A DNA stretch of 13,629 nt from Candidatus Alkanophagales archaeon (GTDB lineage Archaea; Halobacteriota; Syntropharchaeia; Alkanophagales; B39-G2). The position numbers and the translations under genes were made by a program. The notes beneath the pieces were generated by a model. That model was given only the letters and a program-made list of their open reading frames with translations, had not been told where the DNA came from and did not search any database. Of this stretch, positions 1 to 13,629 are shown piece by piece (position 1 is the stretch's first letter; each line of letters opens with the position of its first letter). The stretch spans positions 1 through 13,629 of the forward strand of contig QMVQ01000023.1 in NCBI GenBank assembly GCA_003661185.1, written 5' to 3'.

Positions 1-248
1 TCCATAACCTGGGCTACTCCGGCGTCTTCACATACCCGATGCTCTTCGGCGATGCGAACATAGACGACGTGGTTTCGATCAGGGATGCGCAATGGATCGC
101 GAAGTACGACGTCGGGCTCGTGGATGACGGCGCAATCGACGTTGCGGCAGCTGACGTCAATGGCGACGGGCGTGCGACGGACACGGATGCGATGCTCGTC
201 GCGAAGTTCATCGTCGAGCTTATCTCAGAGTTCCCAGTGGAGGCATGA
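1..248 (+). CDS. Dockerin-tagged substrate-binding protein, 3' end only
   Basis: This is the C-terminal part of a secreted protein whose 5' end lies before the window. The visible frame starts mid-codon and gives about 81 residues before TGA at 246-248. It aligns without gaps to the end of the full-length protein at 11527-12750; by eye about 66 of 82 residues are identical. The first residues (HNLGY) match the last part of the periplasmic-binding-type domain and linker, and the rest is a type I dockerin. Calcium loop 1 has the pattern D-x-N-x-D-D-x-V-S-x-x-D; loop 2 is D-V-N-G-D-G-R-A-T-D-T-D, closer to the canonical loop than that of the downstream copy. Dockerins bind cohesin domains, so the protein is probably held on a surface scaffold. 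A BtuF/FepB-like binding domain upstream is inferred from the paralogue. The next gene begins 12 bases after the stop, so co-transcription is likely. Confidence 0.85.
   Translation, partial: HNLGYSGVFTYPMLFGDANIDDVVSIRDAQWIAKYDVGLVDDGAIDVAAADVNGDGRATDTDAMLVAKFIVELISEFPVEA
45..216 (+). repeat. Direct repeat, copy 1 (dockerin coding DNA)
   Basis: This 172-bp stretch of dockerin coding DNA matches 12547-12718 without indels. Two runs are identical at the base level: 26 bp (45-70 with 12547-12572) and 35 bp (182-216 with 12684-12718). The copies lie about 12.5 kb apart in the same orientation and flank the whole chelatase cluster. The likely origin is duplication of the binding-protein gene; the long identical runs could also support homologous recombination. 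Confidence 0.8.
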
Positions 249-260
249 CAGGTGGAGAGA

Positions 261-519
261 ATGCCGGCGGCGGCGTGTGGAGCAGCGTGCGACGTTTGCG
301 CACTTAAAGATGCCTGCGGGGCGTCTTAGCCACATCAAGGAGAAGTTTGGGACGTCGTGTCCGGTCTTGGAGTGTGCGATGAAAAGGGGCATGGATTTCT
401 GCTTGCGGTGCGCCGACTTCCCCTGCGGGACGCACTACGAGCACGGCATGCCCTTCAGCCACAGGTTCCTTGACATGATGAAAGAGTTCAAAAGTGGGGT
501 CAGAAGCGAGGAGGCTTGA
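261..519 (+). pseudogene. DUF3795-like Cys-rich small protein, frameshifted
   Basis: A good Shine-Dalgarno (GGTGGAG, 251-257) precedes ATG at 261. That frame encodes a Cys-rich start, C-G-A-A-C-D-V-C-A-L-K-D-A-C-G, then hits TAG at 327-329. The +1 frame, open from before this point to TGA at 517-519, carries the rest of the same kind of protein: CPVLEC, a DFCLRC motif, a DFPC motif and a C-terminal F-x-D-M-M-K stretch. Cysteine pairs in both halves are typical of the DUF3795 family of small, probably metal-binding proteins. Removing one base from the GGGG run at 318-321 would join the halves into one protein of about 85 residues. The second half has an internal ATG at 310 without a ribosome binding site. 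It is either a real frameshift mutation, a sequencing or assembly error, or programmed frameshifting. It sits 12 bases after the dockerin gene and 2 bases before cobN. Family function is unknown. Confidence 0.7.
508..514 (+). promoter_or_regulatory. Ribosome binding site deciding the first cobN start
   Basis: GAGGAGG at 508-514 is 7 bases before ATG 522, a normal spacing. The alternative TTG at 516 would be 1 base away, too close to use this site. The site lies inside the 3' end of the preceding DUF3795-like reading frame, which suggests translational coupling. Confidence 0.7.
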
Positions 520-521
520 AG

Positions 522-3500
522 ATGCTACCAAGAGTAGCAGCGGCGGTGTGGGGCAGCTGCGTATCTCCGCTCGTCGAGGCTGCGCGTTCGTTGCCTTTCG
601 ACGTTGAGGTCTGGAATCTCGTGGAGGTCGAGGAGGGGCGGTTAGAGGAATGCTTACGCTCGCTGAAAAATACTGACTTGATCCTCGTTTATCCAATGGA
701 GAGCTTGCGTTGCTGGGAGCTGCTGGAGAAAGGGCTTGCGGGGCTGGAGAAGCCAATAGTGGCGGTGGGCGGCGAACCCTCGAAGTGGCTGCTCTCGAAT
801 GTCGGCACGAAGGTCACGCTCGTCGCAAATCAGTATTTTGCGTTTGGCGGCGTTGAAAACCTCAAAAATCTTTTAAAATTCCTTGCAAGCGAGGTTCTCG
901 GCGTCGCTTGCGAGTTCTCACCGCCAGCAGAGCTTCCGTGGGATGGGATTTACCATCCTGACGCATCTTCGGCGTTTAACAATGTCGAGGAGTATTTGCG
1001 GTGGTATGAGCACGCGGGACATCTCAAAAAGGCGCCGACCGTTGGCATCCTATTTTACCGAAACTACTGGGTCACCGGAAATCTCGAGGTTGAGAACGCT
1101 TTAATTAGGAGCTTTGAGGCTGAGGGTTTGAACGTCATAGCGGCGTTCTCTTACAGCAGCGCGGCGGAACATGGCGCCCGCACGAACCTCGAAGTCATAA
1201 AGGACTTTTTCATGGACGACGACCGTCCGAGGATAGACGCGCTCGTGAATCTGCAGTGGACACCGCTCGGTGGCGACTGGCGTGACCGCAAAACTTCGGC
1301 GGAGCGTGCCGTCGAGCTTTTGAAAAGATTGAACGTTCCGGTATTCCACCCGCACATCGCATACCACATGACTGAAAACGAGTGGCGTTCGTCCGGTCAG
1401 GGCGTCGGCGGCAGCATCATGGCGTTTACGATAGCGTTGCCTGAGCTTGAGGGCGTGGTCGAGCCGATACTTGTGGGCGTCACGAAGGCGGAGCATGAAG
1501 GCATCGCGGACACGCTCGTGGAGCGTGCGACGCCCGTCGAGGAGCGAGTTCGCAAAATCGTGCGGCGTGTGAGGCGTTGGTTGGAATTGCAGCAAAAGCC
1601 GCCTTCCGAGCGTAAATTGGCGTTCATCCTGCACAACAATCCGTGCGCGAGCGTTGAGGCGACCGTCGGCTCCGCCTCCCACCTTGACTCGCTGGAGAGC
1701 GTTGCCCGCATCATAAACAAGCTTAAAGAGGCTGGTTATAAGGTCGAAAACCCGCCGAAGGATGGAAAGGAACTGATAGAAACGATAATGAACCGCAAGG
1801 CAATCAGTGAGTTCCGGTGGACGACCACCGAAGAGATAGTGCGGCGTGGCGGCGTTCTTGCATTCGTGAGCGCCGACGAATATGAGGCGTGGTTTAGAAC
1901 GTTGCCTGAGGACGCTCAGAGGCGAGTTGTGGGGGCATGGGGTGAGCCGCCAGGTGAGGAGCGGGACGGCGTCCCTGCCTCGATGATTCACGAGCGTCGC
2001 ATCCTCGTCACGGGCGTGAGTTACGGGAACGTTGTCGTGTTGGTGCAGCCGAAGCGAGGATGCGCCGGCGCCCGCTGTGACGGGCAGGTCTGCAAGATTT
2101 TGCATGACCCGAGTGTTCCGCCGCCACACCAGTATCTTGCGACTTACATGTGGCTCGACAAGGTTTTCGGCGTCGACGCCATCATCCACGTAGGGACACA
2201 CGGGAACCTTGAGTTCTTGCCGGGGAAGGGCGTTGCGCTTTCGGGCTCTTGCTTCCCGGACATTGCGATCGGTGACGTGCCACACCTCTACATTTACAAC
2301 TCGGATAACCCACCTGAGGGCACGATCGCGAAGCGTCGCAGCTACGCCACGCTCGTCGACCACATGCAGACCGTCATGACCGAAAGCGGACTCTACGGCG
2401 AGCTTAAGGAGCTTGAAGCCCTCATTTCGGAATACAAGAAGGCTGAAGGGGCGAGGGCACATGAGTTACAACACCAAATCTGGGAAGCTGCTCGCAAGGT
2501 CAAAGAGATTGAAGGCGTCCAGAACTTCGAAGAGCTTTTAGAGCGTGCTCACAAACTCATCACGCAAATATATAACACGCAAATTCCTGATGGCATGCAC
2601 GTTTTCGGCGAAATTCCAAAGGGGGATAAGAAAATCGAGTTTGTGAGAGGCGTGCTGAGGCAGGAGCTGAGGGCGTTTGCATTGAAAGCTCTACGGCTTA
2701 GGGGTGAGAGCGACGAGGGTGGCGTTAGGCTTCTTGCGGAAGCGGACGAGCTTTCAAGGCGTGTCGTTGAAGCCGCTTTGAGCGGGCAGACGGCGGCTGA
2801 GATTTTTGAGGAGTTGAGTTTTAACGCTCTCGACAGCAACTCGCAGCGTGAAGTTGTGGAGGAGCTTCGTCGTATGGTCAAGAAAATTTCGGACGTTTCT
2901 TCAAGGATTGACTCTTCTGACGAGTTAGGGAGCTTGCTGAGGGGTTTTGAGGGTGGCTATGTCGAACCGGGACCTTCGGGACTGGTAACGAAAAAGCCGG
3001 AGGTGCTGCCGACCGGTCGTAATTTCTTCTCGCTCGACCCTGAAAGAATACCGACGAAAGCGGCATGGGAAGTCGGGAAGAAGCTTGCGGAGAAGCTCCT
3101 TGAGCGGTATTTGAGAGACGAGGGTAAATATCCGGAGAACGTCGCCATGTATTGGATGTGTAGCGATATCATGTGGAGCGATGGCGAACAACTCTCGCAG
3201 ATTCTTTATTTGATAGGTGTGGAGCCGCTCTGGGAGAGTGGCAAGGTGCGGGGCTTCAGGCTCATCCCGCTGGAGGAGCTTCGCCGCCCAAGAATCGACG
3301 TGACCATCCGTGTCAGTGGAATTACCCGTGACAACTTCCCGAACGTCATCGAGCTTTTGGACGAGGCGTTCCACGAGGTTGCGTCACTGAACGAGCCCTT
3401 GGAGTTGAATTACGTGCGGAAGCACGCCATTGAAAAGTTTAGGGAAGGGACGAGCTGGCGGGATGCCACACTTCGCATATTTTCAAGCAAGCCTGGCACC

Positions 3501-4313
3501 TATGGCGCGGGCGTAAACCTTGCCGTCTACGCTTCTGCGTGGAAGGAGGAGCGGGATCTTGCAGAGATTTTCGTTTACTGGAATGGCTACGCCTACGGCA
3601 AAGACATCTTCGGTAAGGAGGCGCATGAACACCTAGTTTCGCAGCTTAAAAGCGTCGAGATGACGTTTAACAAGACCACAACCGACGAGTATGACCTACT
3701 GGGGTGCTGTTGCTACTTCTCAACGCACGGCGGGCTCACGGCAGCGGCTCGCACCATCTCCGGTAGGGACGTAAAACCATACTACGGCGACACGAGGGAC
3801 GCAAGCGCCGTCGAGGTGCGAACGCTCGCCGAGGAAGTTAGTAGAGTGGTGCGCACGAAACTCCTGAACCCGAAGTGGGTCGAGGGTATGAAGCGGCACG
3901 GCTACAAGGGCGCCGGCGACATCTCGAAACGCATCGGACGCGTCTTCGGCTGGCAGGCGACCACGAGAGAAGTTGGCGACTGGATTTTCGACGAGATTGC
4001 GAAAACCTTCGTGCTCGATGAGGAGATGCGCCACTTCTTCGAGGAGAACAACCCATATGCGCTCGAAGAAATCGAGCGTCGCCTCGTCGAAGCTGCCGCC
4101 CGAAATCTCTGGAAGCCCGACCCTGAAGTGCTGAAAGGACTCAGGGCGGCGTATCTTGAGACGGAAGGGCTACTGGAAGAGCGGATGGGCGATGTGGCAG
4201 CGCCACTACAGGGCAGCTCAATAGATGTGCTCACGGCGGACGACGTTGAGAGCTGGGGCGAGAAGCTACATAAGGTAAGAGAGCTTCTGGAAACGAGAGA
4301 GGAAACTCAGTAG
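522..4313 (+). CDS. cobN: CobN-family metallochelatase large subunit, Cys-rich type (paralogue 1)
   Basis: This cytosolic protein of 1263 residues is in the CobN/BchH family, whose classic role is ATP-dependent metal insertion into a tetrapyrrole (cobalt in B12 synthesis, magnesium in chlorophyll). It has the usual CobN length and landmarks: H-V-G-T-H-G-N-L-E-F-L-P-G-K from H556, with H560 and E564; the A-K-R-R-S-Y-A-T-L block; P-T-G-R-N at 830-834; and the RRPRIDV and FPNV motifs. Two features differ from the second CobN here: an insertion C514-x4-C519-x4-C524 and a triple cysteine at 1062-1064 where CobN normally has acidic residues. It also has about 40 extra C-terminal residues. There is no signal peptide. 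No CobS/CobT or ChlI/ChlD partner is in the window, so the substrate is unknown: cobalt chelation, another metal, or removal of metal as in the HmuS branch. The gene is part of a tight operon, 2 bases after the DUF3795-like frame. Confidence 0.93.
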   Translation: MLPRVAAAVWGSCVSPLVEAARSLPFDVEVWNLVEVEEGRLEECLRSLKNTDLILVYPMESLRCWELLEKGLAGLEKPIVAVGGEPSKWLLSNVGTKVTLVANQYFAFGGVENLKNLLKFLASEVLGVACEFSPPAELPWDGIYHPDASSAFNNVEEYLRWYEHAGHLKKAPTVGILFYRNYWVTGNLEVENALIRSFEAEGLNVIAAFSYSSAAEHGARTNLEVIKDFFMDDDRPRIDALVNLQWTPLGGDWRDRKTSAERAVELLKRLNVPVFHPHIAYHMTENEWRSSGQGVGGSIMAFTIALPELEGVVEPILVGVTKAEHEGIADTLVERATPVEERVRKIVRRVRRWLELQQKPPSERKLAFILHNNPCASVEATVGSASHLDSLESVARIINKLKEAGYKVENPPKDGKELIETIMNRKAISEFRWTTTEEIVRRGGVLAFVSADEYEAWFRTLPEDAQRRVVGAWGEPPGEERDGVPASMIHERRILVTGVSYGNVVVLVQPKRGCAGARCDGQVCKILHDPSVPPPHQYLATYMWLDKVFGVDAIIHVGTHGNLEFLPGKGVALSGSCFPDIAIGDVPHLYIYNSDNPPEGTIAKRRSYATLVDHMQTVMTESGLYGELKELEALISEYKKAEGARAHELQHQIWEAARKVKEIEGVQNFEELLERAHKLITQIYNTQIPDGMHVFGEIPKGDKKIEFVRGVLRQELRAFALKALRLRGESDEGGVRLLAEADELSRRVVEAALSGQTAAEIFEELSFNALDSNSQREVVEELRRMVKKISDVSSRIDSSDELGSLLRGFEGGYVEPGPSGLVTKKPEVLPTGRNFFSLDPERIPTKAAWEVGKKLAEKLLERYLRDEGKYPENVAMYWMCSDIMWSDGEQLSQILYLIGVEPLWESGKVRGFRLIPLEELRRPRIDVTIRVSGITRDNFPNVIELLDEAFHEVASLNEPLELNYVRKHAIEKFREGTSWRDATLRIFSSKPGTYGAGVNLAVYASAWKEERDLAEIFVYWNGYAYGKDIFGKEAHEHLVSQLKSVEMTFNKTTTDEYDLLGCCCYFSTHGGLTAAARTISGRDVKPYYGDTRDASAVEVRTLAEEVSRVVRTKLLNPKWVEGMKRHGYKGAGDISKRIGRVFGWQATTREVGDWIFDEIAKTFVLDEEMRHFFEENNPYALEEIERRLVEAAARNLWKPDPEVLKGLRAAYLETEGLLEERMGDVAAPLQGSSIDVLTADDVESWGEKLHKVRELLETREETQ

Positions 4314-4316
4314 GCT

Positions 4317-4321
4317 GGTGA
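4317..4321 (+). promoter_or_regulatory. Ribosome binding site deciding the surface-protein start
   Basis: GGTGA, complementary to the archaeal 16S CACCU tail, lies 5 bases before ATG 4327. The upstream in-frame GTG at 4318 falls inside this site and has no close Shine-Dalgarno of its own, so ATG 4327 is preferred. Confidence 0.55.
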
Positions 4322-4326
4322 AATTC

Positions 4327-6570
4327 ATGCGGGAGGCAGCGGTGCGGCGGCAGCTGCTTCTAACCATTTTATTGGCATTTTTTCTGTTTTTATTCGTCTC
4401 CGTTGCGGAAGCCAGCGTCGTGGAGCGGAACTTCACGGCTGAAGGCGGTTATCTCTGGTTTGCGGGGGCGCTGCCCGGCTGTCCCGATGATGAGAGCAAG
4501 AAGCTTGTGGTTTATGAGGGCGAAGAAATCTATTTCGTGAGCGAGAGCGGCGACTTCGTGGACGTCATAGTTTCAGGACCCTACGAGCACGACGGCGATG
4601 CAAAGTCCGGTTGTAAGGACTACGAGGTGAGAGCTGGCGAGCCTTGGGACACGAGCGGCATGAAAACCGGCTACTTTTTCAAGGTTGTGGAAGAGGCAGA
4701 CGAGAGCGTCGGCGGCTGGTTCGGCGTTGAGCGCCACTCCTTTAGTATCGAGCTTGAGAAGGAGCGGGTGCAGGAAGGCGAACGCTTCACGCTACGCCTC
4801 AAGAAGAACGACAAGGAGTGTGGCGTTTTCAAGCTCACCATCGAGGACGACGACGGTTTCTCGATAACAAACGAGGAAGGCGTTGACGTTTACGAAATCT
4901 TAATCGAATATGAGGAACGTAACTTCCGGCGATTCGCCAAGGGTCAGGCTGAAGTTGCGGGCATCAACTTCACAGTCGACGGCGAGCTCGTCCTTGATAC
5001 TGCCCTCCTAAAAATGGAGGATGGGGAATACAAAATCATCTTGGAGGATTGCGCCACCGACGCCGACGATGACGTGAGCGTGGAGGTCAAGCTCGTGCAT
5101 CTGGAGCTTGAGGTGCCTGCGGAGGTCGTGCGTGGAGAAGACCTCGAAATCATCATCAGAAGCTCGTTCTTCGAGCGTGCCGCCGCCGTCTCCATCACAT
5201 CAGGAATGCTCAACCTCTACGAAGGCGTCGTCACGCTCGACGAGGACGGGAAGAAAAAGCTACGAATCCCTACCGAAGACGCAGAGCTTGGTAGATATAG
5301 AGTGGAGGTGAGCGTGAGCGGGATTCGTAGGACGAAATACGTGGAAATCATTGAGGGAGAGCTTTTCGTAAATGTTCCTGCGGAGGCAACCGTCGGTGAC
5401 GTCATCACGGTCAACGGCACCGCGAACTATGGCGAATACGTTATTATTCTGGTGGATGAGCGTTTTGAGGACTGCGTGCGACTGAGCGTTTCCGAGGGCA
5501 AGCGGAGCTTCGAGTGGAGCTGGGACACGACCGGCGAGAGCGAGGGGCGGCAGAAGCTTGAGTTCTTCGTGGTCTACGAGCCACTGACGTTCTCTGAGGG
5601 CGAGCGGGTGAGCGATGACTGGCAGTCTGAAGAGGGCGTGGACGCGCGTGCGTCGCTTCTGCTCCGCCTGCCGAGCCTCGAGCTTGAGGTGCCGAGCGAG
5701 GTTGCGGAAGGCGACGATGTCATCATCAAGGGCAACGCCACCGGCACGAGCCGCATCTTCATCATAATATTCGACCGCAGAGGCAAAATTGTCTTCCCGG
5801 AAAGCGGCGTTGCGCACGCTACGCCTGTGGTGCGAGGGAGCTTTGAGGAGGATGCCGGGACGCTCGACGCTGGCAGGTATTATATTGTGGCGGTGCACGC
5901 CGGCAGGGACGGCGTCACGAACGCAATTGAGGGCAGGCGCTGGGACGTTGGCGACGCCTCCAAAAGCTTAGAGCAGCGGCTCGAAATCCTTGAGGATGCG
6001 CTCACGGCGGCGGGCAGCGATGACCTCTTCGAAGAGGCAACGCTCGTCGTCAGAAGTCCAGAAGTCGAACTTCATGCTCCGAAAAGCGTCTCAGTTGGCG
6101 AGCTTTTAGAGGTTCAGGCAGAAACGAACGTCAGGGACGGTGAGCTTGCGAGGTTTACCCTCTCTAACAGCAGCTTTCGCCTCGAAATGACAGCTTTCGT
6201 TGAAAATAGCTGGTTACGCGTTAGTTTTAACACCTCAAAACTCCAGCCCGGAGTTTACAAGCTGACGGTAGACGTCGCCGGAAGGGTGCAGGACTACAAG
6301 AACGTGACGCTCCTCGCCACCAAAAAGAGCGAGGCAAAAAGCACGCCTGCAAGCACGAACGAGAGCGTAAGCGAGGTAGGCGCTGGGGAAGAGCTGTCTG
6401 AGGAGACTTTTGAGAGTGAAACGCAGCCGCCGCCCGCCGCTGGAGCCGGCGGTGGGAACGTCAGCAACGAAAGCTCGCCGCTCAGCGGCTTCCCAAGGGT
6501 GCCGGTGTCGAGCTTGCTCGTAGTGGTAGCTTTGACGGCGGCGTTCGTGCTGCGGCGCCGCCTCCGTTAA
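4327..6570 (+). CDS. Secreted Ig-like surface protein with PEF/PGF-CTERM-like tail
   Basis: The product is about 747 residues. A basic start (R2, R7, R8) and a hydrophobic stretch at about 10-27 end in A-E-A, a likely Sec signal cleaved near residue 29. After a unique N-terminal region (about 30-250) come four Ig-like modules, each opening with a similar strand: L-E-L-E-V-P-A-E-V (259), L-F-V-N-V-P-A-E-A (346), L-E-L-E-V-P-S-E-V (451) and V-E-L-H-A-P-K-S-V (580). A Ser/Thr/Pro/Gly/Glu-rich stalk follows, then S-G-F-P-R-V-P, a hydrophobic segment and R-R-R-L-R. This tripartite end resembles archaeosortase substrates (PEF-CTERM or PGF-CTERM), which would place it on the outer surface with a processed C-terminus. 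About ten N-x-S/T sequons fit a glycosylated S-layer-associated protein. It is very acidic. The gene lies 13 bases after cobN and 6 before the membrane protein, suggesting a role in the same uptake or chelation system. I do not recognise a named family for the N-terminal region. Confidence 0.85.
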   Translation: MREAAVRRQLLLTILLAFFLFLFVSVAEASVVERNFTAEGGYLWFAGALPGCPDDESKKLVVYEGEEIYFVSESGDFVDVIVSGPYEHDGDAKSGCKDYEVRAGEPWDTSGMKTGYFFKVVEEADESVGGWFGVERHSFSIELEKERVQEGERFTLRLKKNDKECGVFKLTIEDDDGFSITNEEGVDVYEILIEYEERNFRRFAKGQAEVAGINFTVDGELVLDTALLKMEDGEYKIILEDCATDADDDVSVEVKLVHLELEVPAEVVRGEDLEIIIRSSFFERAAAVSITSGMLNLYEGVVTLDEDGKKKLRIPTEDAELGRYRVEVSVSGIRRTKYVEIIEGELFVNVPAEATVGDVITVNGTANYGEYVIILVDERFEDCVRLSVSEGKRSFEWSWDTTGESEGRQKLEFFVVYEPLTFSEGERVSDDWQSEEGVDARASLLLRLPSLELEVPSEVAEGDDVIIKGNATGTSRIFIIIFDRRGKIVFPESGVAHATPVVRGSFEEDAGTLDAGRYYIVAVHAGRDGVTNAIEGRRWDVGDASKSLEQRLEILEDALTAAGSDDLFEEATLVVRSPEVELHAPKSVSVGELLEVQAETNVRDGELARFTLSNSSFRLEMTAFVENSWLRVSFNTSKLQPGVYKLTVDVAGRVQDYKNVTLLATKKSEAKSTPASTNESVSEVGAGEELSEETFESETQPPPAAGAGGGNVSNESSPLSGFPRVPVSSLLVVVALTAAFVLRRRLR

Positions 6571-6576: not shown

Positions 6577-7527
6577 ATGTCCGTGCTTCTTGGCTCCTCA
6601 ATCCTCGCATCAAAACTCTTATTGAAGACTCTGCCGTTCATGCTCGTAGGCGTCATTCTTGCGGAGTTTATCGTAGCGTTAGGCGTCGTAGAAAAGCTTT
6701 CGTGGCTCGCGAAGCCGATAACGAATTTTTCGCATCTCAGAGAGGAGTGTGGCGTAAGCTTCCTCCTCGCTTTCATTTCGCCGACTGCTGCCAATGCTAT
6801 GCTTGCGGACTACTACGAAAAAGGCTTTATCGAGAAGAGAGAGCTATTCATCGCCGCCATGATAAATTCCTTTCCGGCAGTCGTCATGCACTGGCGTTAT
6901 CTCCTTCCGATAGTTGTGCCGCTGCTCGGCATTGCCGGCGTCATTTATTTCGGGATGCTCATGCTCGTCGGGCTCCTGAAAACGACGTTGCTCATGCTCG
7001 TCGGCAGATTCGTGCTCGAAGGCAGCGGCGCATCGCCGAAATCCGATGCAAGAGCCGGGGCAAAGCGTCCGACGCTTCCAGAGGCTTTCCACAAGAGCTT
7101 ACACTCTTCTAAGCCTGTGATGAAAAGGATAGTAGCCATCACCGTGCCGACAATGTTTGTCGTATGCCTTTTGATAGAAGTTGGAGCATTTGACGCCCTT
7201 TCTTCGCTGCTCAGTGGCGTGACGTCGCTGCTTCCAGTGCCGCCGGACGCATTGGGCGTGATCGCCGCACACCTCGGACATCATACTGCGGCGTGCACGG
7301 TCGCCAGCGGACTTCTCGCCGCCGGGAGACTCTCCGTAAGGGACGTCGTCATAACCCTGCTCTTCGGAAACGTGCTTGCGAGCATCACGACCGCCTTACG
7401 CTTTTTTGCGCCGCACTACGTCAGCATTTTCGGTCCGAGAGAGGGTCTGGAGCTGATGACGGTCTCAACGGCGATAAGAGATGGGATCACTCTCGTTTTG
7501 ATCGCGGCACTCATGCTGCTCTGGTGA
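6577..7527 (+). CDS. Polytopic membrane protein, nucleoside-recognition (GATE) family, COG3366-like
   Basis: This 316-residue protein is mostly hydrophobic, with about seven to nine likely membrane segments in two halves. The halves are separated by a hydrophilic loop at about 148-183 rich in Ser, Lys, Arg and Ala. The motif S-P-T-A-A-N-A-M-L-A-D-Y-Y from residue 68, followed by a R-E-L-x-x-A-A-M-I-N-S-F-P segment, is typical of the archaeal COG3366 nucleoside-recognition/GATE group. The family's function is not settled; members are thought to be transporters or channel-like. The second half carries H232, H235, H236 and C240 in a Gly/Ala-rich stretch (A-H-L-G-H-H-T-A-A-C), possible metal ligands in a membrane setting. 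The start lies 6 bases after the previous stop with no clear Shine-Dalgarno, so translation is probably coupled. Its place beside cobN and a surface protein suggests uptake of a metal, chelate or tetrapyrrole; that substrate is inference. Confidence 0.82.
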   Translation: MSVLLGSSILASKLLLKTLPFMLVGVILAEFIVALGVVEKLSWLAKPITNFSHLREECGVSFLLAFISPTAANAMLADYYEKGFIEKRELFIAAMINSFPAVVMHWRYLLPIVVPLLGIAGVIYFGMLMLVGLLKTTLLMLVGRFVLEGSGASPKSDARAGAKRPTLPEAFHKSLHSSKPVMKRIVAITVPTMFVVCLLIEVGAFDALSSLLSGVTSLLPVPPDALGVIAAHLGHHTAACTVASGLLAAGRLSVRDVVITLLFGNVLASITTALRFFAPHYVSIFGPREGLELMTVSTAIRDGITLVLIAALMLLW

Positions 7528-7711: not shown

Positions 7712-7727
7712 GCGCCATCAGCCCATA

Positions 7728-7732: not shown

Positions 7733-7738
7733 GGCGTC

Positions 7739-10700
7739 TTGATAGTGGTCATCTCGACGCTGGCGTCCACGAAGCCGCTGATCACGGCTTATCGGAGCAT
7801 AAGGGTGGGGAACAAGCCGGAATTGCGAGTTTACTACCCACATGAAGTGAATGAAGAGTGGGTGGAGCTTAAAGAGTTCGAAAGGAAGTTAAAAGAAGCC
7901 TCTGCGGTCTTAATAGACGTCAGAGGAGGGGGAAAGGTCGAAGAGGTTCTTCATCGGGCATTAAAGGGAAAAAATAACGTCGTGGTCACGCTCATCGGCT
8001 CGCCGAGGCTGATGTCTCTTACGAGGCTCGGCTCCTTCACCATGGAGAAGTTCTCTGAAAAGTTCGAGGAGAGCTCTCGGCTGAGCACCGAGGAACTTTA
8101 CAAAAGAGCGAGGAGGATCCAGAGTATCATCGAAATTGCCGGAAGACTTCCGATAGGCTCGCTCCGGGACGCAAGAAACTACGTGAAAATCCTGAAATAC
8201 TACTCGTACGGCGGCGAGGAGAACTACCGAAACATGTTCATTACCCTCTTGAGGTATTTGGGCTACAAGCTTCCAGAGCCTAAGGAGCCGAAGGAGAGGC
8301 ACGAAATCGGAGCCTATCACCCAAAGCTCGGCTTTCTTGAGGAGCCTTTGCCGAACGAGGAAAAGCCGAGCGTCGGCGTGCTGATTTACGGCGGCATGCA
8401 CTTCGACCAGTGCGTCCCGCCACTTAAAGCCCTTGTGGAGCGTTTAGAGAATCTTGGCGTTAGCGTCACGCCGATTTATGTCGAAAGCACGACGAAGACG
8501 TTAGAGGGCATTCGGCGGTTCTTCTTCAAACACGGAAAGCCTGCCGTCGACGCTGTTATCAGCCTCCTCTGGTTCAGGCTCAACGGCGGCCCGCTCGGCG
8601 GAGACCCGAGACCTACGCTCGCGCTCCTGAAAGAGCTCGGTGTGCCTGTCTTCTGCCCGGCTCCGATGTACATGAGAGAGGTTTCGAGCTGGGAGCTGTC
8701 GCCGACCGGGCTCTCTCCGATCGAAATTATATGTGCGGTGGTCTGGCCGGAGCTTGACGGCTGCGTTGAGCCCATTCCCTGCTGTGGGCTGAAAAGCGAG
8801 GAGTTTGAGGGCGTCGTCGTGAAGGACACGCTTCCCATTGAAGGTCGAATTGAGAGGGTCGTTGCGAGGGTCGGAAACTGGATTTCGCTGAAAACGAAGA
8901 GGAACGAGGAGAAGCGTCTCGCAATAGTTCTTTACGATTATCCCCCGGGGGAGGCGAACATCGGGAGCGCCGCTTACTTGGACACCTTTGAGAGCGTGAA
9001 AAGGCTCTTAGAAAGGCTAAAAGCGGAAGGTTATGTCGTCGAAATTCCAGAGAGCTTAAAAGAGCTTTTTGAGGTCTTTGCGGTCGTTAATTCCGGGAGG
9101 TGGCTGGATGCGAGGAAGACGCTAAAGAACTGCCCGAGCATCGAGCTTCAAGAATATTGCAGGTGGTTTGAGGAGCTGCCTGAAGAGTTGAGACGGGACG
9201 TCATCGAGAGCTGGGGACTTCCGCCGGGGAACGTGATGGTTGAGGGCGGTTGCATTCTCATCCCCGGGATCTGGCTGGGGAACGTCTTCGTCTGCCTCCA
9301 GCCATCAAGAGGCGTTCACGAGAACCCTGAGAAGGCTTACCACGACAAGAAGCTCCCGCCACATCATCAGTACATCGCATTCTACAAATACCTGCAGAGA
9401 GAGGTGGATGCGGTCATCCACGTCGGGACGCACGGCACGCTCGAATTCCAAAAGGGTAAGGAGGTGGGGCTGAGCTCGAAATGTTTCCCGGACGTCCTGA
9501 TCGGGAACCTCCCGCACGTCTACATTTATCACGTGCTGAACACTTCCGAAGGTTCGATTGCGAGGCGTCGCAGCTACGCCACGCTTGTGAGCTACAACTC
9601 GCCACCGTACACGACTTCCGACCTCTACGGCGACCTCCTCGAGCTCGAAGACCTGATCAACGAGTTTCACGAGGCGAGCGTTCAAGACCCGAGGAGGGTG
9701 GAGACGCTTCGCCGTAAAATCATGGAGAAAGCCGAGAATCTTCACTTAGACGGGAGAAGCGTCGATGAAATTCATGACGAACTTATTGAGATGAAGCGAA
9801 GTATCATCCCCAAAGGCTTACACGTTCTCGGCGAGAGGTACTCCGAGGAGGAGCTTGTGGACTTCGTCCGGCTTCTCCTTCGTTACGATAGAGGCGGCTT
9901 GAAATCGCTGAACAGAATACTTGCGGAAAATAAAAGGCTGAATTACGATGAGCTTCTCAAACGCCCCGGCAAGCATGTTAGGACTCTTGATGAAATTGAG
10001 AAGGAGGCGGAAGAGCTTGTAAAGACGCTCCTTTCCGAAGGGGTAGGTAGGGTTGTGAAGAGAGGTGGCGTTTCAAGACCGCTGAGGGCGGAGCTGAGGA
10101 GGACGCTCGAATTCGGGCTTTCTGTTGCGAGGAAGTTTCAAAAGAACGACGCAGAATTGGATAATGTTGTTAGAGCCCTGAATTGCGAGTTTGTCGAGCC
10201 AGGACCGGGCGGGGACGTGCTTCGGAATCCGGAGGCGCTACCAACCGGCCGCAATATCTATCAGTTCGACCCAAATCTGATACCGACGCAGACCGCCTGC
10301 GAGCGAGGCGCCGAGATTGCGGAGAACACGATAAGACGCTTCTTGGAAAAGCATGGGAGGTATCCTGAGAGCGTGGGCGTCGTTCTCTGGGGCTTTGAGA
10401 CGACGAAGACCGGCGGGGAGACCATCGGTCAAATCCTGCACTACCTCGGCGTGAGGCTGAAGCGAAGAGGGGCTTGGAGCGTCGAGCTTGAGGTCGTCCC
10501 GCTGGAGGCGCTTCGCCGCCCGAGGATCGACGTGCTTGTTAACATCTGCGGCTTCTTCAGAGACATGTTCCCGAACGTCCTCCAGCTTTTGAGCAGGGCG
10601 TTCGAGCTTGTTGCGTCTCTCGACGAACCTCTTGACAAGAATTTCGTGAGAAAGCACGCTATAGAAGCTAGAGAAGTGTTGAAGGAGTTGTTTCCTGAGG

Positions 10701-11458
10701 GTGAAGAAATATCTGAGGAGCGTTTTTGGAGGCTCGCCTCTGCGAGGGTCTTTGGTCCGGACGCCGGCGAGTATGGGACGAAGGTGACGACGCTCATTGA
10801 GGCTTCGAACTGGGAAGAGGAAAAGCAGCTCGCAGAGGCTTACATCAGCTCGATGAACCATGTTTATGCGGAGAACGTGCACGCCGAGAAGGTTGACGCC
10901 CTCTACAGAAAGCTGCTTTCCACCGTCGAGCTCGTCTCGCAGATCAGAGACTCTCATGACTATGAGATAACCGACTTAGACCACTATTACGAGTTCTTCG
11001 GCGGCTTGTCGAAGGCTGTGGAGACCGTCAGCGGGAGGAAGCCGGAGATGCTGATCACGGACACCACGAAAGAGGTTCTGAAGACGGAGGAGGTTTCAAA
11101 AGCCGTAAAACGGAGCGTCAGGGCGAGGCTGCTGAACCCGAAATGGATCGACGAGATGCTGAAACACGACTTCCACGGCGCACAGAAAATCGCGGACCGC
11201 GTCGAGTATTTGCTGGGGCTCGCCGCCACGACCGGTGGCGTCGAGAGCTGGGTGTTCAGCGAGGTTGCCTGCCGTTTCGTCTTCGATGATAAGATGCGGA
11301 GGCGGCTCGCAGAGAACAACAAATGCGCAGCTGCGGAGGTCATCGAACGCCTCCTAGAGGCGGCGAGGCGGGGCTACTGGAAAGCGTCGGAGGCGGAGTT
11401 GAAGAGGTTGAGGGAGGCGTACCTCGAAATCGAAGGACGCCTCGAAGATGTGGTATGA
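7739..11458 (+). CDS. cobN: CobN-family metallochelatase large subunit (paralogue 2)
   Basis: This second cytosolic CobN-type protein has 1239 residues and is clearly divergent from the first. It shows the family landmarks: H-V-G-T-H-G-T-L-E-F with H561, H565 and E569; the A-R-R-R-S-Y-A-T-L block; P-T-G-R-N from 835; RRPRIDV; and a G-F-F-R-D-M-F-P-N-V motif, the common CobN form. At D1079-L-D-H it keeps the acidic stretch before Y-Y-x-F-F-G-G that the first CobN replaces with G-C-C-C. Around Q-P-S-R-G it lacks the C-x4-C-x4-C insertion. It therefore looks closer to ordinary CobN. Starting at TTG 7739, it has its own TATA box and is followed after 68 bases by the dockerin-tagged binding protein. 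The usual role is ATP-dependent cobalt insertion into a corrin with AAA+ partners, none of which is in the window; another metal, or metal removal, is possible. The two paralogues probably have different substrates or partners. Confidence 0.92.
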   Translation: MIVVISTLASTKPLITAYRSIRVGNKPELRVYYPHEVNEEWVELKEFERKLKEASAVLIDVRGGGKVEEVLHRALKGKNNVVVTLIGSPRLMSLTRLGSFTMEKFSEKFEESSRLSTEELYKRARRIQSIIEIAGRLPIGSLRDARNYVKILKYYSYGGEENYRNMFITLLRYLGYKLPEPKEPKERHEIGAYHPKLGFLEEPLPNEEKPSVGVLIYGGMHFDQCVPPLKALVERLENLGVSVTPIYVESTTKTLEGIRRFFFKHGKPAVDAVISLLWFRLNGGPLGGDPRPTLALLKELGVPVFCPAPMYMREVSSWELSPTGLSPIEIICAVVWPELDGCVEPIPCCGLKSEEFEGVVVKDTLPIEGRIERVVARVGNWISLKTKRNEEKRLAIVLYDYPPGEANIGSAAYLDTFESVKRLLERLKAEGYVVEIPESLKELFEVFAVVNSGRWLDARKTLKNCPSIELQEYCRWFEELPEELRRDVIESWGLPPGNVMVEGGCILIPGIWLGNVFVCLQPSRGVHENPEKAYHDKKLPPHHQYIAFYKYLQREVDAVIHVGTHGTLEFQKGKEVGLSSKCFPDVLIGNLPHVYIYHVLNTSEGSIARRRSYATLVSYNSPPYTTSDLYGDLLELEDLINEFHEASVQDPRRVETLRRKIMEKAENLHLDGRSVDEIHDELIEMKRSIIPKGLHVLGERYSEEELVDFVRLLLRYDRGGLKSLNRILAENKRLNYDELLKRPGKHVRTLDEIEKEAEELVKTLLSEGVGRVVKRGGVSRPLRAELRRTLEFGLSVARKFQKNDAELDNVVRALNCEFVEPGPGGDVLRNPEALPTGRNIYQFDPNLIPTQTACERGAEIAENTIRRFLEKHGRYPESVGVVLWGFETTKTGGETIGQILHYLGVRLKRRGAWSVELEVVPLEALRRPRIDVLVNICGFFRDMFPNVLQLLSRAFELVASLDEPLDKNFVRKHAIEAREVLKELFPEGEEISEERFWRLASARVFGPDAGEYGTKVTTLIEASNWEEEKQLAEAYISSMNHVYAENVHAEKVDALYRKLLSTVELVSQIRDSHDYEITDLDHYYEFFGGLSKAVETVSGRKPEMLITDTTKEVLKTEEVSKAVKRSVRARLLNPKWIDEMLKHDFHGAQKIADRVEYLLGLAATTGGVESWVFSEVACRFVFDDKMRRRLAENNKCAAAEVIERLLEAARRGYWKASEAELKRLREAYLEIEGRLEDVV

Positions 11459-11469
11459 ACATGTGGCTC

Positions 11470-11491: not shown

Positions 11492-11526
11492 TGTCATCAG
11501 AGCGGTAGCATTATCGTGGTGGTAGC

Positions 11527-12750
11527 ATGAGTGGAGGTATGCGTGTCGGTATCGGGTTGGCGGTGATGGTGGCGGTTCTGTTCATGGCTCTGTTCACGGT
11601 TGCGTCGTGCGCCGCTCAGCCGGAGCGGGTCGTGGTGCTGACGCCGCAAGCCGCGGAGGTGCTTCGCCTCCTCGGAGCCGAAGACAAGATTGTGGGAATA
11701 AGCAGTACGGTCCTCGGGTACGGTAGGGACGCTTTCTTCCCCGAACTTGCGGGCATGCCGCAGGTCGGCTCGTTCCACCATCCTGACGTTGAGAGGATCA
11801 TCGAGCTGGAGCCGGATGTTGTCGTCGAATACACGTGGGCCGCTCAATACCTTGAGGAGAGCCTCACGCCCCTCGGCATCGAGGTCTGGCGTTACGACTT
11901 CTACGAGCCGCAGACGCTCCTCGACGAAATCGAGGAGCTTGCAAGCCGCTTGGGGTCCGAATACGAAGGCGCCGCACAGGAGTACGTACGCTTTGCAGAG
12001 GAGAAGATGGAGGCGATAGAAAGCGTGGTTTCCGGAATTCCAGAGGATGAACGTCCTAAGGTCTTTATCGAGGGCGGACCTTACGGGCAGTATTACACGA
12101 CGAACAACAGCGGCTGGGCGGTCTGCGTGGAGTGGGCAGGCGGGGAGAACGTAGCCGCCGACATCGTGGGCGAAGGGGGGCACGCTGGGGCGTGGCTCGA
12201 CCCGGAATGGGTCGTCGATCAGGACCCGGAGGTTTTCGTCAAGGTTTCATGGTGGCACATGCCAGGTGGCTACGGCTCCGACGACCCTTTTGCGCTAAAG
12301 GAGTTCAAGGATGAGATCGCCGCAAGGTCGGAGCTGGAGACCGTTTCGGCTGTAGTCAATGACGGAATCTACGTTATCACGTTCGACATGCTGCTCAGTC
12401 CAAGCTATTTCGCCGGCGTCGCCCAGCTTGCGAAGTGGTTCCATCCCGAAACGGCGACGAGCCTGAAACCTCGGCAGTGGCATAAAGAGTATCTCGAAAA
12501 GTTCCACAACTTGGGTTATCTCGGCGTCCACACATATCCGCTGCTGTTCGGCGATGCGAACATAGACGACGTCGTCTCAATACGCGATGCGCAGTGGATA
12601 GCAAAATACGACGTGGGACTCCTCGGCGATGACGAGATAGATGAGGTGGTGGCGGATGTCAGCGGCGATGAGCGCGTCACGATCACGGATGCGATGCTCG
12701 TCGCGAAGTTCATCGTCGGGCTCATCGAAGAGTTCCCGGTGGAGGCGTGA
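11527..12750 (+). CDS. BtuF/FepB-like substrate-binding protein with C-terminal dockerin
   Basis: The product has 407 residues. Residues 1-30 form a signal peptide (hydrophobic 8-27, then V-A-S-C-A-A-Q); V-A-S-C28 also fits a lipobox. Residues about 32-330 are a class III periplasmic-binding fold of the cobalamin/Fe-siderophore type: E-R-V-V-V-L-T-P-Q-A-A-E-V-L-R-L-L-G-A near the start, then H-H-P-D-V-E-R-I-I-E-L-E-P-D-V-V-V, and a late D-G-I-Y-V-I stretch. Residues 339-407 are a dockerin with two calcium loops: D343, N345, D347, S351, D354 and D377, S379, D381, T385, D388. Loop 2 has S and E where the canonical loop has N and G. GGTGGT at 11518-11523 lies 3 bases before ATG 11527; ATG 11539 is an alternative. 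Such proteins normally hand a corrinoid, haem or iron chelate to a BtuCD-type permease, absent here. The dockerin suggests attachment to a cohesin scaffold, and a cohesin gene follows. The ligand is inferred only from the cobN context. Confidence 0.88.
   Translation: MSGGMRVGIGLAVMVAVLFMALFTVASCAAQPERVVVLTPQAAEVLRLLGAEDKIVGISSTVLGYGRDAFFPELAGMPQVGSFHHPDVERIIELEPDVVVEYTWAAQYLEESLTPLGIEVWRYDFYEPQTLLDEIEELASRLGSEYEGAAQEYVRFAEEKMEAIESVVSGIPEDERPKVFIEGGPYGQYYTTNNSGWAVCVEWAGGENVAADIVGEGGHAGAWLDPEWVVDQDPEVFVKVSWWHMPGGYGSDDPFALKEFKDEIAARSELETVSAVVNDGIYVITFDMLLSPSYFAGVAQLAKWFHPETATSLKPRQWHKEYLEKFHNLGYLGVHTYPLLFGDANIDDVVSIRDAQWIAKYDVGLLGDDEIDEVVADVSGDERVTITDAMLVAKFIVGLIEEFPVEA
12547..12718 (+). repeat. 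Direct repeat, copy 2 (dockerin coding DNA)
   Basis: This is the partner of 45-216: same length, no indels, with identical runs of 26 bp (12547-12572) and 35 bp (12684-12718). It lies within the dockerin of the full-length binding protein. Confidence 0.8.
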
Positions 12751-12766
12751 CGTAATGCCGCCAACG

Positions 12767-12790
12767 ATGTAACACACAAAGTATGTAACA
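12767..12790. repeat. Direct octamer repeat upstream of the cohesin-gene TATA box
   Basis: ATGTAACA occurs at 12767-12774 and again at 12783-12790, with starts 16 bases apart. The pair ends about 20 bases before the TATA box, a place where archaeal activators can bind. Regulatory meaning is a guess. Confidence 0.35.
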
Positions 12791-12794
12791 TTAA

Positions 12795-12800
12795 TTTTTT
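12795..12800 (+). terminator. T6 run after the binding-protein gene
   Basis: A run of six T within TTAATTTTTTAA, 45 bases past the stop at 12750, fits the U-rich intrinsic terminators of archaea. No strong stem precedes it. It would end the second transcription unit just before the cohesin promoter. Confidence 0.4.
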
Positions 12801-12811
12801 AACTCATACAA

Positions 12812-12819
12812 CTTTATAC
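12812..12819 (+). promoter_or_regulatory. TATA box for the cohesin gene
   Basis: CTTTATAC fits the archaeal TTTATA-type box. Initiation about 25 bases downstream falls near 12840, leaving a leader of about 20 bases that contains the ribosome binding site. Confidence 0.6.
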
Positions 12820-12831
12820 GTCAGCATGGAA

Positions 12832-12846
12832 TATGGATATGCCATA
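12832..12846. promoter_or_regulatory. Palindrome at the expected transcription start of the cohesin gene
   Basis: TATGG-atatg-CCATA is a perfect 5-bp inverted repeat with a 5-base centre, 12 bases after the TATA box. It has the same 5-5-5 geometry and promoter position as 7697-7711, though the half-sites differ in sequence and order. It may be an operator; chance is possible. Confidence 0.28.
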
Positions 12847-12850
12847 AGTA

Positions 12851-12858
12851 GGAGGTGA
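12851..12858 (+). promoter_or_regulatory. Strong ribosome binding site of the cohesin gene
   Basis: GGAGGTGA is a full match to the archaeal anti-Shine-Dalgarno sequence. It is 3 bases before ATG 12862 and 6 bases before the in-frame ATG 12865; spacing slightly favours the second. It is the strongest site in the window, suggesting high expression. Confidence 0.7.
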
Positions 12859-12861
12859 GGA

Positions 12862-13629
12862 ATGATGAATAAGAAAATAGGAATGGTGGTATTTTTCATG
12901 GCGGCGTTCCTGCTATCCGCAACCGTAATGGCGGCAGATGTTAGCGTAGAGTCGGTGACCGTGGAGCGTGGCGGCTTTGCGTATGTGAACGTCACTATAG
13001 AAAACGTGCCACCGCCGGGACTCGGTGCGTATTCGCTGCTCATGAGCTTTGACCCCGGTGTCGTGAGCATCGAGGAGGTGTATCCCGGCGATTCTCCCTT
13101 CGGGACGCCTGCTGCCGTGAACATAGACAATGATGCCGGTGAAATTCGATTCAACGATTACATAGCGGCGGAAGAGGGTCCGGAGAGCGTGTGCGTTGTC
13201 AAATTGGGGCTGCGAGCTGTCGGCGATGCTGGTGACGAAAGCGTGCTTGACGTGACACCGCTCGAAATCGCAGACGCCTCTGGAACGCTCGTCACGGCGA
13301 CGGAGCACGACGGCGTCTTCGGGATAATGGCGCCGACCGTTGCGCTTGAGCCGTCAAGCGTTACCCTTTACGAGGGGGAAACCGCAACGCTGAACGTCAC
13401 CGTCCACGACGTGCCGGAACCTGGTCTCGGCGCCTATTCTGTCGAGATCGCCTATGATCCAGCGGTCGTCAGCGTCGAAGAAGTTCTTAGCGGTGAGGAG
13501 CCCTTTGGGGAGCCTGCGGCGGTGAACGTGAACAACACTGCGGGCTGGGTCGCCTTTAACGACTTCATCACGAACGACACGGGTCCGAGGGATGCGACGG
13601 TTGCGTCGCTGAGGATAAAAGCTCTAGCA
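12862..13629 (+). CDS. Secreted protein with tandem cohesin-like domains, 5' part
   Basis: The open frame gives 256 residues and continues past the window. M-M-N-K-K then a hydrophobic stretch (6-22) ending V-M-A-A25 is a Sec signal peptide. Two homologous domains follow, about 135 residues apart: domain 1 about 26-155 and domain 2 from about 157 to the window end. Shared landmarks are V-P-x-P-G-L-G-A-Y-S (L54 and L189), a F/Y-D-P-x-V-V-S-x-E-E-V strand, P-F-G-x-P-A-A-V-N and F-N-D-Y/F-I. This order fits the cohesin domain (PF00963), the partner of dockerins; other Ig-like adhesin repeats are the main alternative. Its place just after a dockerin-tagged binding protein, and about 12.5 kb from another, supports a scaffold role in which it would recruit those proteins at the cell surface. 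N-x-T sites suggest glycosylation. Anchoring and the total number of domains cannot be seen. The gene has its own promoter and a very strong ribosome binding site. Confidence 0.85.
   Translation, partial: MMNKKIGMVVFFMAAFLLSATVMAADVSVESVTVERGGFAYVNVTIENVPPPGLGAYSLLMSFDPGVVSIEEVYPGDSPFGTPAAVNIDNDAGEIRFNDYIAAEEGPESVCVVKLGLRAVGDAGDESVLDVTPLEIADASGTLVTATEHDGVFGIMAPTVALEPSSVTLYEGETATLNVTVHDVPEPGLGAYSVEIAYDPAVVSVEEVLSGEEPFGEPAAVNVNNTAGWVAFNDFITNDTGPRDATVASLRIKALA

What the first reader, a model, noticed from the sequence alone, without database searches (positions are those of the whole stretch)
1..13629. Surface cohesin-dockerin assembly coupled to a metallochelatase and uptake locus
Two dockerin-tagged substrate-binding proteins, a tandem-cohesin secreted protein, an archaeosortase-type surface protein, a GATE membrane protein and two CobN chelatases lie together on one strand. 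Binding proteins of this type normally work with BtuC/BtuD, absent here. The combination suggests an extracellular tetrapyrrole or metal-chelate capture scaffold feeding intracellular metal insertion or removal. Dockerins on non-cellulosomal archaeal proteins are known (e.g. Archaeoglobus), but I know of no described function linking them to CobN.
Basis: partly seen in the sequence, partly recalled or inferred. Interest (0 to 1): 0.72.

Follow-up and report, generated by a model that had tools for sequence, protein, structure and literature searches.

The report
Archaeal surface-docked corrinoid or metal-chelate uptake
A heat-loving, oil-eating archaeon appears to plug different nutrient-catching proteins into sockets on its cell surface with one shared click-in tag and to pass the catch, perhaps a B12-type ring or its metal, through an importer to an enzyme of the metal-inserting kind.

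Summary
The genes described are present, but the window is one contig cut at both ends. Its last 123 bases overlap contig C145 of the same genome, which continues with an anchor-like cohesin protein, a BtuC-type permease, a BtuD-type ATPase and a gene like the nitrogenase iron protein. "BtuC/BtuD absent" is thus a contig-end artefact. All Pfam-detected dockerins (2) and cohesins (3) of this draft genome lie here.

Tagged PF01497 binding proteins lie near CobN in five genera of three families of the class. Within a genome the tags are nearly identical (93% mean in one array) while the binding domains diverge (39%); silent sites suggest recent copying. In Alkanophaga the tag is at the other end.

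Bacterial operons with the same core and a CobN2 relative have cobalamin riboswitches in 9 of 13 scanned loci. Both Alkanophaga drafts lack CbiC, CbiD and CbiH hits but have CbiZ and CobS.

Best reading: a surface-docked binding-protein set feeding a BtuCD-type importer for corrinoid or cobalt salvage. Ligand, docking and chemistry are unproven; the binding protein's fold is nearer siderophore-type YiuA than BtuF. New variant of known parts.

The parts
3..248 (+). C-terminal tail with dockerin (dockerin 48-212) of binding protein SBP1, cut by the contig start
   Evidence: Pfam PF00404 37.9 bits; intact orthologue L036:4731-6092 in G001 is PF01497 + dockerin
256..519 (+). small protein with DUF3795 (start codon not fixed)
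   Evidence: PF12675 29.3 bits; same place in G001 by a home-made profile
516..4313 (+). CobN1, class I chelatase large subunit; CCC-type loop (LLGCCCYFSTHGG)
   Evidence: PF02514 1307 bits, NF004646 1726 bits over cut-off; motif
4318..6570 (+). surface protein, 750 aa, hydrophobic C-terminal segment with Arg tail; homologues named from ANME-1/Methanophagales
   Evidence: no Pfam; weak S-layer match; 36 proteins at E<=1e-5 including itself, mostly unnamed or hypothetical, one 'Cell surface glycoprotein'
6577..7527 (+). GATE membrane protein
   Evidence: PF07670 36.7 bits; GATE within 2 kb of CobN1 in 11 of 28 loci
7739..11458 (+). CobN2, BchH-type chelatase large subunit with DLDHYYEFFGG loop
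   Evidence: PF02514 1187 bits; TIGR02025 945 bits over cut-off; motif
11527..12750 (+). SBP2: PF01497 binding domain (11629-12384) with C-terminal dockerin (12550-12714)
   Evidence: model pLDDT 83.5 overall, dockerin part low
12862..13629 (+). secreted protein with two cohesins (12940-13281 and 13345-13626), cut by the contig end; continues on G000:C145
   Evidence: PF00963; 123-base overlap with C145; intact 416-aa sister protein L037:1023-2273

Best explanation
A corrinoid/cobalt salvage locus in which the extracellular binding proteins are held on the cell surface by cohesin-dockerin docking. Shown by sequence: PF01497 binding proteins carry dockerins; the locus (window plus overlapping contig C145) encodes a two-cohesin protein, a one-cohesin protein with a Pro/Thr linker and hydrophobic Arg-ended tail, a BtuC-type permease, a BtuD-type ATPase, two CobN-family chelatase subunits, a GATE membrane protein and, last, a protein of the nitrogenase iron-protein family. 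Inferred: the dockerins plug into the neighbouring cohesins, which tie them to the membrane or S-layer; the docked proteins catch a chelate outside and hand it to the shared importer; inside, CobN with the ATPase subunit encoded elsewhere inserts metal (most likely cobalt) into an imported corrinoid that lacks it, the iron protein perhaps supplying a reduction step, and CbiZ/CobZ and CobS rebuild the cofactor. The shared tag lets one scaffold and one importer be served by several binding domains.
For: Importer present in the same genome; best NCBIfam hits of the sister's permease and ATPase are BtuC and corrinoid ATPase, both below cut-off. The 2 dockerins and 3 cohesins found are all here. 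Arrangement found beyond the genus. Tags 93% identical against 39% for binding domains, 45 of 45 pairs in G010; 98% against 36%, 6 of 6 in G055, with fewer silent differences in the tags. Bacterial operons with the same core: cobalamin riboswitch in 9 of 13 scanned loci, and a ChlI-type ATPase gene near CobN in 11 of 11 loci where a candidate was scanned. Dehalobacter restrictus operon-2 (FepBCD/BtuCDE-like transporter, CbiZ, CobN, Mg-chelatase subunits) rises 346-fold in transcript on corrinoid starvation (PMC4285132, abstract and passages). Both Alkanophaga genomes lack CbiC, CbiD and CbiH hits but have CbiZ and CobS; the window genome has the chelatase ATPase. Alkanophaga expresses ACDS, and mcm is among the genes plotted (PMC10322722, passages); that these need corrinoids is recalled.
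Confidence: 0.48

Rival explanations
1. Haem or other iron-porphyrin uptake: the docked proteins catch haem and CobN2 works like HmuS, removing iron without ATP.
For: CobN2 has DLDHYYEFFGG where HmuS has SLDHVYEFMGG with the second axial His and Glu; true CobN has DDYYQF or DDYFQY there. HmuS is the top solved match for this segment, though level with ChlH (58.2 vs 58.0 bits) (PMC12583661 section 14). IsdE scores above BtuF for SBP2.
Against: The same loop is in the CobN2 relatives of the 13 bacterial loci scanned for riboswitches, where ChlI-type ATPases sit near CobN, as a ChlI/D-type ATPase does in G055. Multihaem cytochromes are absent from Alkanophaga (PMC10322722, passage).
Confidence: 0.11
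2. Cobalt, nickel or another metal is imported as free ion or small chelate (as in CbtJKL), and the chelatases use that metal; no ring is imported.
For: CbtJKL, first taken for a cobalamin transporter, imports Co(II) (PMC7689651 passage). HI1472 (molybdate) and HP1561 (nickel) are among the closer folds. GATE lies near CobN1, and in G055 dockerin-tagged SBP_bac_5 proteins sit by Opp/Nik-type permeases.
Against: Alkanophaga shows no hits for three corrin-ring genes, so metal alone would not give it the cofactor; a ring must come in somewhere.
Confidence: 0.16
3. A nickel-tetrapyrrole (F430-type) or other tetrapyrrole is taken in and worked on by the chelatase and a nitrogenase-like reductase; the host needs F430 for its alkyl-CoM reductases.
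For: An iron-protein gene follows the ATPase by 4 bases on C145 and begins at the same place in the sister; nearest solved relatives are nitrogenase iron proteins (225 bits), then protochlorophyllide-reductase iron protein (156 bits). In G010 two H/D/K-like sets lie among the tagged binding proteins. Such reductases act on tetrapyrroles in bacteriochlorophyll and F430 synthesis (recalled; DPOR also in an abstract start).
Against: H/D/K-like genes turned up in only 3 of 144 locus pieces, so they are not a fixed part. Nitrogenase-like enzymes also serve sulfonates (PMC11423573, abstract start). No D/K partner was sought in the window genome. The bacterial counterparts are cobalamin-riboswitch controlled.
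Confidence: 0.1
4. Ferric-siderophore uptake with the chelatases as mere neighbours.
For: YiuA-type fold is closest to SBP2.
Against: Binding-protein genes lie near CobN2 in 6 of 6 Syntropharchaeia loci (window included) and 40 of 69 named loci, but near 0 of 14 genes of another CobN class. The binding protein of a riboswitch-controlled Tissierella operon is also siderophore-like (CeuE best), so this class does not tell the ligand.
Confidence: 0.1
5. The dockerins dock to cohesins of the syntrophic partner bacterium rather than the cell's own; the locus is mainly an adhesion device.
For: Cohesin/dockerin proteins occur in partner sulfate reducers of ANME and were proposed as adhesins (PMC10553843 passages).
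Against: The only Pfam-detected cohesins of the genome are next door, and the tag sits on uptake proteins of a metabolic gene run. The partner's genome was not searched.
Confidence: 0.05

Closest known systems
Dockerin-tagged ABC binding proteins of ANME archaea (Chadwick et al. 2022, PMC9012536, section 32 read)
   Same: Dockerins on extracellular binding proteins (NikA/OppA and TroA types) and multi-cohesin proteins in related archaea; function left open.
   Different: No mention of CobN in the main text (0 occurrences); section 32 does not report the shared near-identical tag, its change of end, or linkage to a BtuCD-type importer. Its supplementary lists were not seen.
Dehalobacter restrictus operon-2 (PMC4285132, abstract and passages)
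   Same: FepBCD/BtuCDE-like transporter, CobN, Mg-chelatase subunits; cobalamin riboswitch; strongly induced by corrinoid starvation.
   Different: No cohesin or dockerin in the passages read; CbiZ genes inside the operon, on another contig in Alkanophaga.
HmuS haem de-chelatase and the hmu operon (PMC12583661, sections 14 and 23 and passages)
   Same: CobN/ChlH superfamily protein with the LDHxxEF-x-GG loop, in an uptake locus; the paper says that archaeal use of such homologues is unclear.
   Different: No hmu-specific parts among the Pfam hits of the eight window ORFs (not searched genome-wide); the loop is shared by a broad CobN2 clade with ATPase genes nearby.
Cellulosome (recalled)
   Same: Different proteins carrying one dockerin type plug into cohesins, with an anchoring cohesin protein.
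   Different: Cargo are transport binding proteins; no glycosidase among the Pfam hits of the window and sister ORFs scanned; only 2+1 cohesins in Alkanophaga.

Membership tests
BtuFCD/FecBCD-type ABC importer | PF01497 binding protein, FecCD permease and ABC ATPase in one locus | tested here: met
   SBP in window; permease and ATPase on overlapping contig C145; Pfam-confirmed permease and ATPase in sister
BtuFCD corrinoid importer | permease/ATPase/SBP above the curated BtuC/corrinoid-ATPase/BtuF cut-offs | tested here: not met
   sister permease NF007081 273 vs 461; sister ATPase NF007082 263 vs 537; window SBP2 NF002894 39 vs 234 bits. So it is not filed as BtuFCD
BtuFCD corrinoid importer | binds and transports corrinoids | not testable with these tools
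Class I chelatase (CobN/ChlH) | large subunit PF02514 with HxGTHG histidine | tested here: met
   both proteins
Class I chelatase (CobN/ChlH) | AAA+/VWA ATPase partner in the genome | tested here: met
   TIGR02442 at G000:C48, 793 bits over cut-off
HmuS haem de-chelatase | LDHxxEFMGG loop | tested here: inconclusive
   CobN2 has LDHYYEFFGG (F for M), but so do relatives outside HmuS
HmuS haem de-chelatase | Met-79/His-254 head site, MRI motif, membrane helices at both ends | not tested
   -
Cohesin-dockerin system | dockerin and cohesin domains over curated cut-offs in one genome | tested here: met
Cohesin-dockerin system | measured dockerin-cohesin binding | not testable with these tools
PGF-CTERM/archaeosortase substrate | PF18204 match at the C-terminus | tested here: inconclusive
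   no hit for the window surface protein or the L005/L037 cohesin proteins; met for relatives L093:3750-4802 and L078:195-1265

The most novel reading that the evidence does not exclude
A modular, non-cellulosomal 'receptor board': archaea of several families copy one docking tag onto divergent binding proteins so that an anchored cohesin scaffold and importer can be re-equipped for many corrinoids, tetrapyrroles or metal chelates, with a dedicated class I chelatase, and in some genomes a nitrogenase-like reductase, finishing the imported rings. In syntrophic, corrinoid-auxotrophic Alkanophaga it would be the apparatus by which the archaeon takes such rings from its bacterial partner.
Probability: 0.17. 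Interest if true: 0.86.

Novelty: new variant of a known kind. Interest (0 to 1): 0.61.

Why it matters
The HmuS paper (PMC12583661, section 23) states that it is unclear how archaea use their CobN/ChlH/HmuS homologues, and Chadwick et al. (PMC9012536, section 32) that the implications of dockerins and cohesins in ANME-type archaea are not clear. This locus ties the two questions together and makes both testable: a defined tag, scaffold, importer and chelatase. The shared tag on divergent binding domains looks like cellulosome plug-in logic applied to nutrient capture. If Alkanophaga is indeed a corrinoid auxotroph, its partnership with a sulfate reducer may include a vitamin as well as electrons.

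Tried and rejected
Reading 'BtuC/BtuD absent' as a real feature: rejected after the contig overlap and the ATPase on C145. Reading CobN2 as a true BchH because it passes TIGR02025: not adopted; homologues in methanogens carry the same name, and that Alkanophaga makes no chlorophyll is assumed. Haem as first choice because of the HmuS loop: set back once the loop was found in riboswitch-controlled operons; one of the two patterns of the scan was this loop, so its frequency in L098-L177 is partly by construction. Using the binding-protein class to name the ligand: siderophore-type matches for SBP2 and for a riboswitch-controlled SBP, so uninformative. Selection alone as the cause of tag identity: silent differences are 0.24 and 0.09 in tags against 0.58 and 0.55 in binding domains, which favours recent copying.

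Of the 169 bacterial neighbour ORFs printed, 15 were scanned: one rubrerythrin and 14 ChlI/ChlD candidates picked by size and position, all 14 matching, from 11 loci. Literature: CobN with dockerin, 0 papers; dockerin with cobalamin, archaea and substrate-binding, 0 papers; nitrogenase-like, CobN and archaea, listing of 240 papers holding at least two of the terms, top 20 seen as listing only. Only the held PMC library was searched. The second structure job was not used.

Limits of counts: one search counts within fetched pieces, many cut by contig ends; G057's cluster was fetched in two pieces and is undercounted; G001 was left out as a near-duplicate of the window and five named loci as duplicates; most partial CobN hits were not fetched. 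Home-made profiles were iterated on the same ORF set. N-terminal tags score below the Pfam cut-off of 22.9: 11.9-18.0 bits in six PF01497 proteins, 20.5 and 14.2 in the two Methanothrix/Methanosaeta proteins, and no Pfam dockerin at E<=1 in the L103 and L104 binding proteins, whose tags rest on the home-made profile alone.

They gave the ATPase and iron-protein gene on C145, CobS in the window genome, the extra ChlI scans and the G055 permeases; I added the F430 rival and lowered the main reading from 0.52 to 0.48, haem from 0.13 to 0.11, metal from 0.17 to 0.16, siderophore from 0.12 to 0.10 and partner docking from 0.06 to 0.05 for that reason. An earlier count said 9+ tandem PF01497 genes on G016:C17; a recount gives 7.
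Full report
WHAT THE WINDOW IS. The window is the whole contig C23 of a 1.69-Mb draft genome in 259 contigs, 86% complete. The one other genome of its genus, G001, is Candidatus Alkanophaga volatiphilum: its contig C4 matches JAPHEE010000004.1 in length, 83,284, with CobN2 92% identical to the window's. The window genome is thus an Alkanophaga, perhaps Ca. A. liquidiphilum (inference). The paper on these archaea describes thermophilic syntrophic oxidisers of petroleum alkanes; its main text has no occurrence of dockerin, cohesin, cobalamin or corrinoid (PMC10322722, passages).

THE GENES. Pfam and NCBIfam confirm the dockerin tail, two CobN-family proteins, a GATE protein, a PF01497 binding protein with C-terminal dockerin and two cohesins, plus an unmentioned DUF3795 gene. 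In G001 the same order runs on: SBP1-dockerin, DUF3795, CobN1, surface protein, GATE, CobN2, SBP2-dockerin, two-cohesin protein, one-cohesin protein with a Pro/Thr linker and hydrophobic Arg-ended tail, FecCD permease, ABC ATPase. The window's own genome has the continuation: contig C145 begins with 123 bases identical to the window's end and encodes the rest of the cohesin protein, the one-cohesin protein, the permease and the ATPase (90% and 92% identical to the sister's). Four bases after the ATPase comes a 295-residue protein of the nitrogenase iron-protein family (L188:1363-2250), whose start is also seen at the end of the sister contig.

IS IT MORE THAN CHANCE? In the window genome the 2 Pfam dockerins and 3 Pfam cohesins found are all in this locus. 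In G001 there are 2 dockerins, 12.7 kb apart on C4, and 3 cohesin matches (places not listed), the number carried by the locus proteins. Dockerins of the N-terminal type described below score under the Pfam cut-off and could have been missed, and the genomes are incomplete.

CONSERVATION. CobN was sought in 58 genomes of the class and found in 42. I fetched 60 regions, nearly all around CobN, and annotated them with profiles built from window and sister proteins. Tagged PF01497 proteins near CobN occur in genera g1 (G000, G001), g4 (G016), g6 (G010, G040), g11 (G047) and g18 (G055, G057), that is families f1, f2 and f5. Among the 80 named loci the same profile finds them in a Methanothrix and a Methanosaeta record (L109, L115) and two Methanosarcinales records (L103, L104), with sub-threshold or no Pfam support. 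Counted within 8 kb (window included): binding-protein genes near CobN2 in 6 of 6 loci (4 of 6 tagged), near CobN1 in 9 of 28 (2 tagged), near the DNDDYFQ class in 0 of 14, near other CobN in 1 of 12. GATE lies within 2 kb of CobN1 in 11 of 28. Cohesin proteins with a PGF-CTERM match sit beside tagged binding proteins in L093 and L078.

THE TAG. In relatives the dockerin of PF01497 proteins is N-terminal (residues about 30-115); in Alkanophaga it is C-terminal. Of the homologues of SBP2 outside Alkanophaga, the top one (P0125) has no tag; the next ten (P0126-P0135) have the N-terminal form by eye (Pfam 21.9 and 15.1 bits in the two scanned). That the tag was gained at the other end is inference. 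N-terminal tags keep two Ca-loop-like repeats but score 11.9-18.0 bits in six PF01497 proteins against a cut-off of 22.9, and 23.8 in one SBP_bac_5 protein. Within genomes the tags are nearly identical while binding domains diverge: G010, 10 proteins, tags 93% (90-100), binding domains 39% (25-62), 45 of 45 pairs; G055, 4 proteins, 98% against 36%, 6 of 6 pairs; the G001 pair 80% against 45%. Identical residues use different codons at 0.24 (G010) and 0.09 (G055) of tag positions against 0.58 and 0.55 of binding-domain positions. Recent copying or shuffling of the tag is the simplest reading. The G010 array lies beside a CobN of another class (IDHTFEFFGG). At least 13 PF01497 matches lie on that contig (capped list); 10 were analysed.

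WHAT IS IMPORTED? Of 69 named CobN2 genes (duplicates removed), 40 have a PF01497 gene and 28 a FecCD gene within 8 kb. In records titled as Clostridia-, Bacillus- and Chloroflexi-type bacteria the order binding protein, FecCD, ATPase, CobN is often contiguous. I scanned 13 of the 19 bacterial loci with all three transport parts: 9 of 13 have a cobalamin riboswitch (RF00174), in six of them within 400 bases before the binding-protein or CobN gene; L152, L160, L164 and L168 have none. In L151 it lies directly before a ChlI-ChlD pair that leads into the binding protein. ChlI-type genes lie near CobN in 11 of 11 loci where a candidate was scanned. In Dehalobacter restrictus an operon of this make-up is induced 346-fold in transcript and 46-fold in protein by corrinoid starvation (PMC4285132, abstract and passages). 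In the 58 archaeal genomes the ATPase TIGR02442 is found in 34 at E<=1e-30; comparing places by eye, it lies within 5 kb of a CobN gene in 15 of them, and in the window genome on another contig (C48, 793 bits).

THE IRON PROTEIN. Besides Alkanophaga, H/D/K-like genes of the nitrogenase family turned up in 3 of 144 locus pieces: two H-D-K sets among the tagged binding proteins of G010 (L094; D- and K-like confirmed by solved relatives), H, D and K beside CobN1 in G044 (L038), and a weaker pair in L174. Such reductases are known on tetrapyrroles (recalled) and on sulfonates (PMC11423573, abstract start). This is a lead for a reduction step, not a fixed part.

DOES THE HOST NEED IT? CbiC is found in 28 of 58 genomes; CbiD in 17 of 19 (16 over cut-off); CbiH in 14 of 19 at E<=1e-40; both Alkanophaga genomes lack all three. 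CbiH is also missing in G016, G055 and G057, and CbiC in G016, G055 and 28 others, so those absences are weak one by one; CbiD is missing only in the two Alkanophaga genomes. CbiZ lies next to CobS in both. The paper reports expressed ACDS and absence of multihaem cytochromes (PMC10322722, passages).

READING. Most likely the locus displays binding proteins on the archaeal surface through cohesin-dockerin docking and feeds a BtuCD-type importer; the cargo is a corrinoid or a cobalt chelate, and the chelatases set its metal. Presence of parts, recurrence and tag homogenisation are shown; docking, ligand and chemistry are inferred. It is a new variant of known kinds: dockerin-tagged binding proteins in ANME are in print (PMC9012536, section 32), corrinoid-regulated CobN transport operons are in print (PMC4285132), and a search for CobN with dockerin found no paper.

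Noticed in passing
L188:1363-2250 (G000:C145) and L094:11458-19833 (G010:C10): Nitrogenase-iron-protein-like gene right after the importer ATPase of this locus, and two nitrogenase-like H/D/K sets among the tagged binding proteins of G010.
   Followed up: partly
L084:12056-16612, L086:6771-11357, L088:3696-8081, L089:813-4258, L091:2-3675: CobN-like proteins that lack the HxGTHG histidine motif (FAIFTS or LTFFTQ at that place), perhaps non-catalytic paralogues; the one in L084 lies next to a 2,038-residue CobN.
   Followed up: no
G016:C17 and G010:C10: Long tandem arrays of PF01497 genes (capped list, shows at least 7 and at least 13).
   Followed up: partly
L056:12210-13949 and L056:17803-19533: In G055 two SBP_bac_5 proteins carry dockerins, one N-terminal and one C-terminal, by Opp/Nik-type permeases in the same island as tagged PF01497 proteins and CobN.
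   Followed up: partly
L036:3655-4623 (minus strand): A second GATE gene lies divergently upstream of SBP1 in Ca. Alkanophaga volatiphilum.
   Followed up: no
window 11527-11620: SBP2 has a lipobox-like VASC after its signal peptide, so it might be lipid-anchored as well as docked; seen by eye only.
   Followed up: no
window 256-519: DUF3795 small protein between SBP1 and CobN1, also in the sister genome; role unknown.
   Followed up: no
L104:6197-8602: A methyltransferase, a CbiA/MinD-type ATPase and a Band 7 protein sit between a tagged binding protein and FecCD in a Methanosarcinales record.
   Followed up: no
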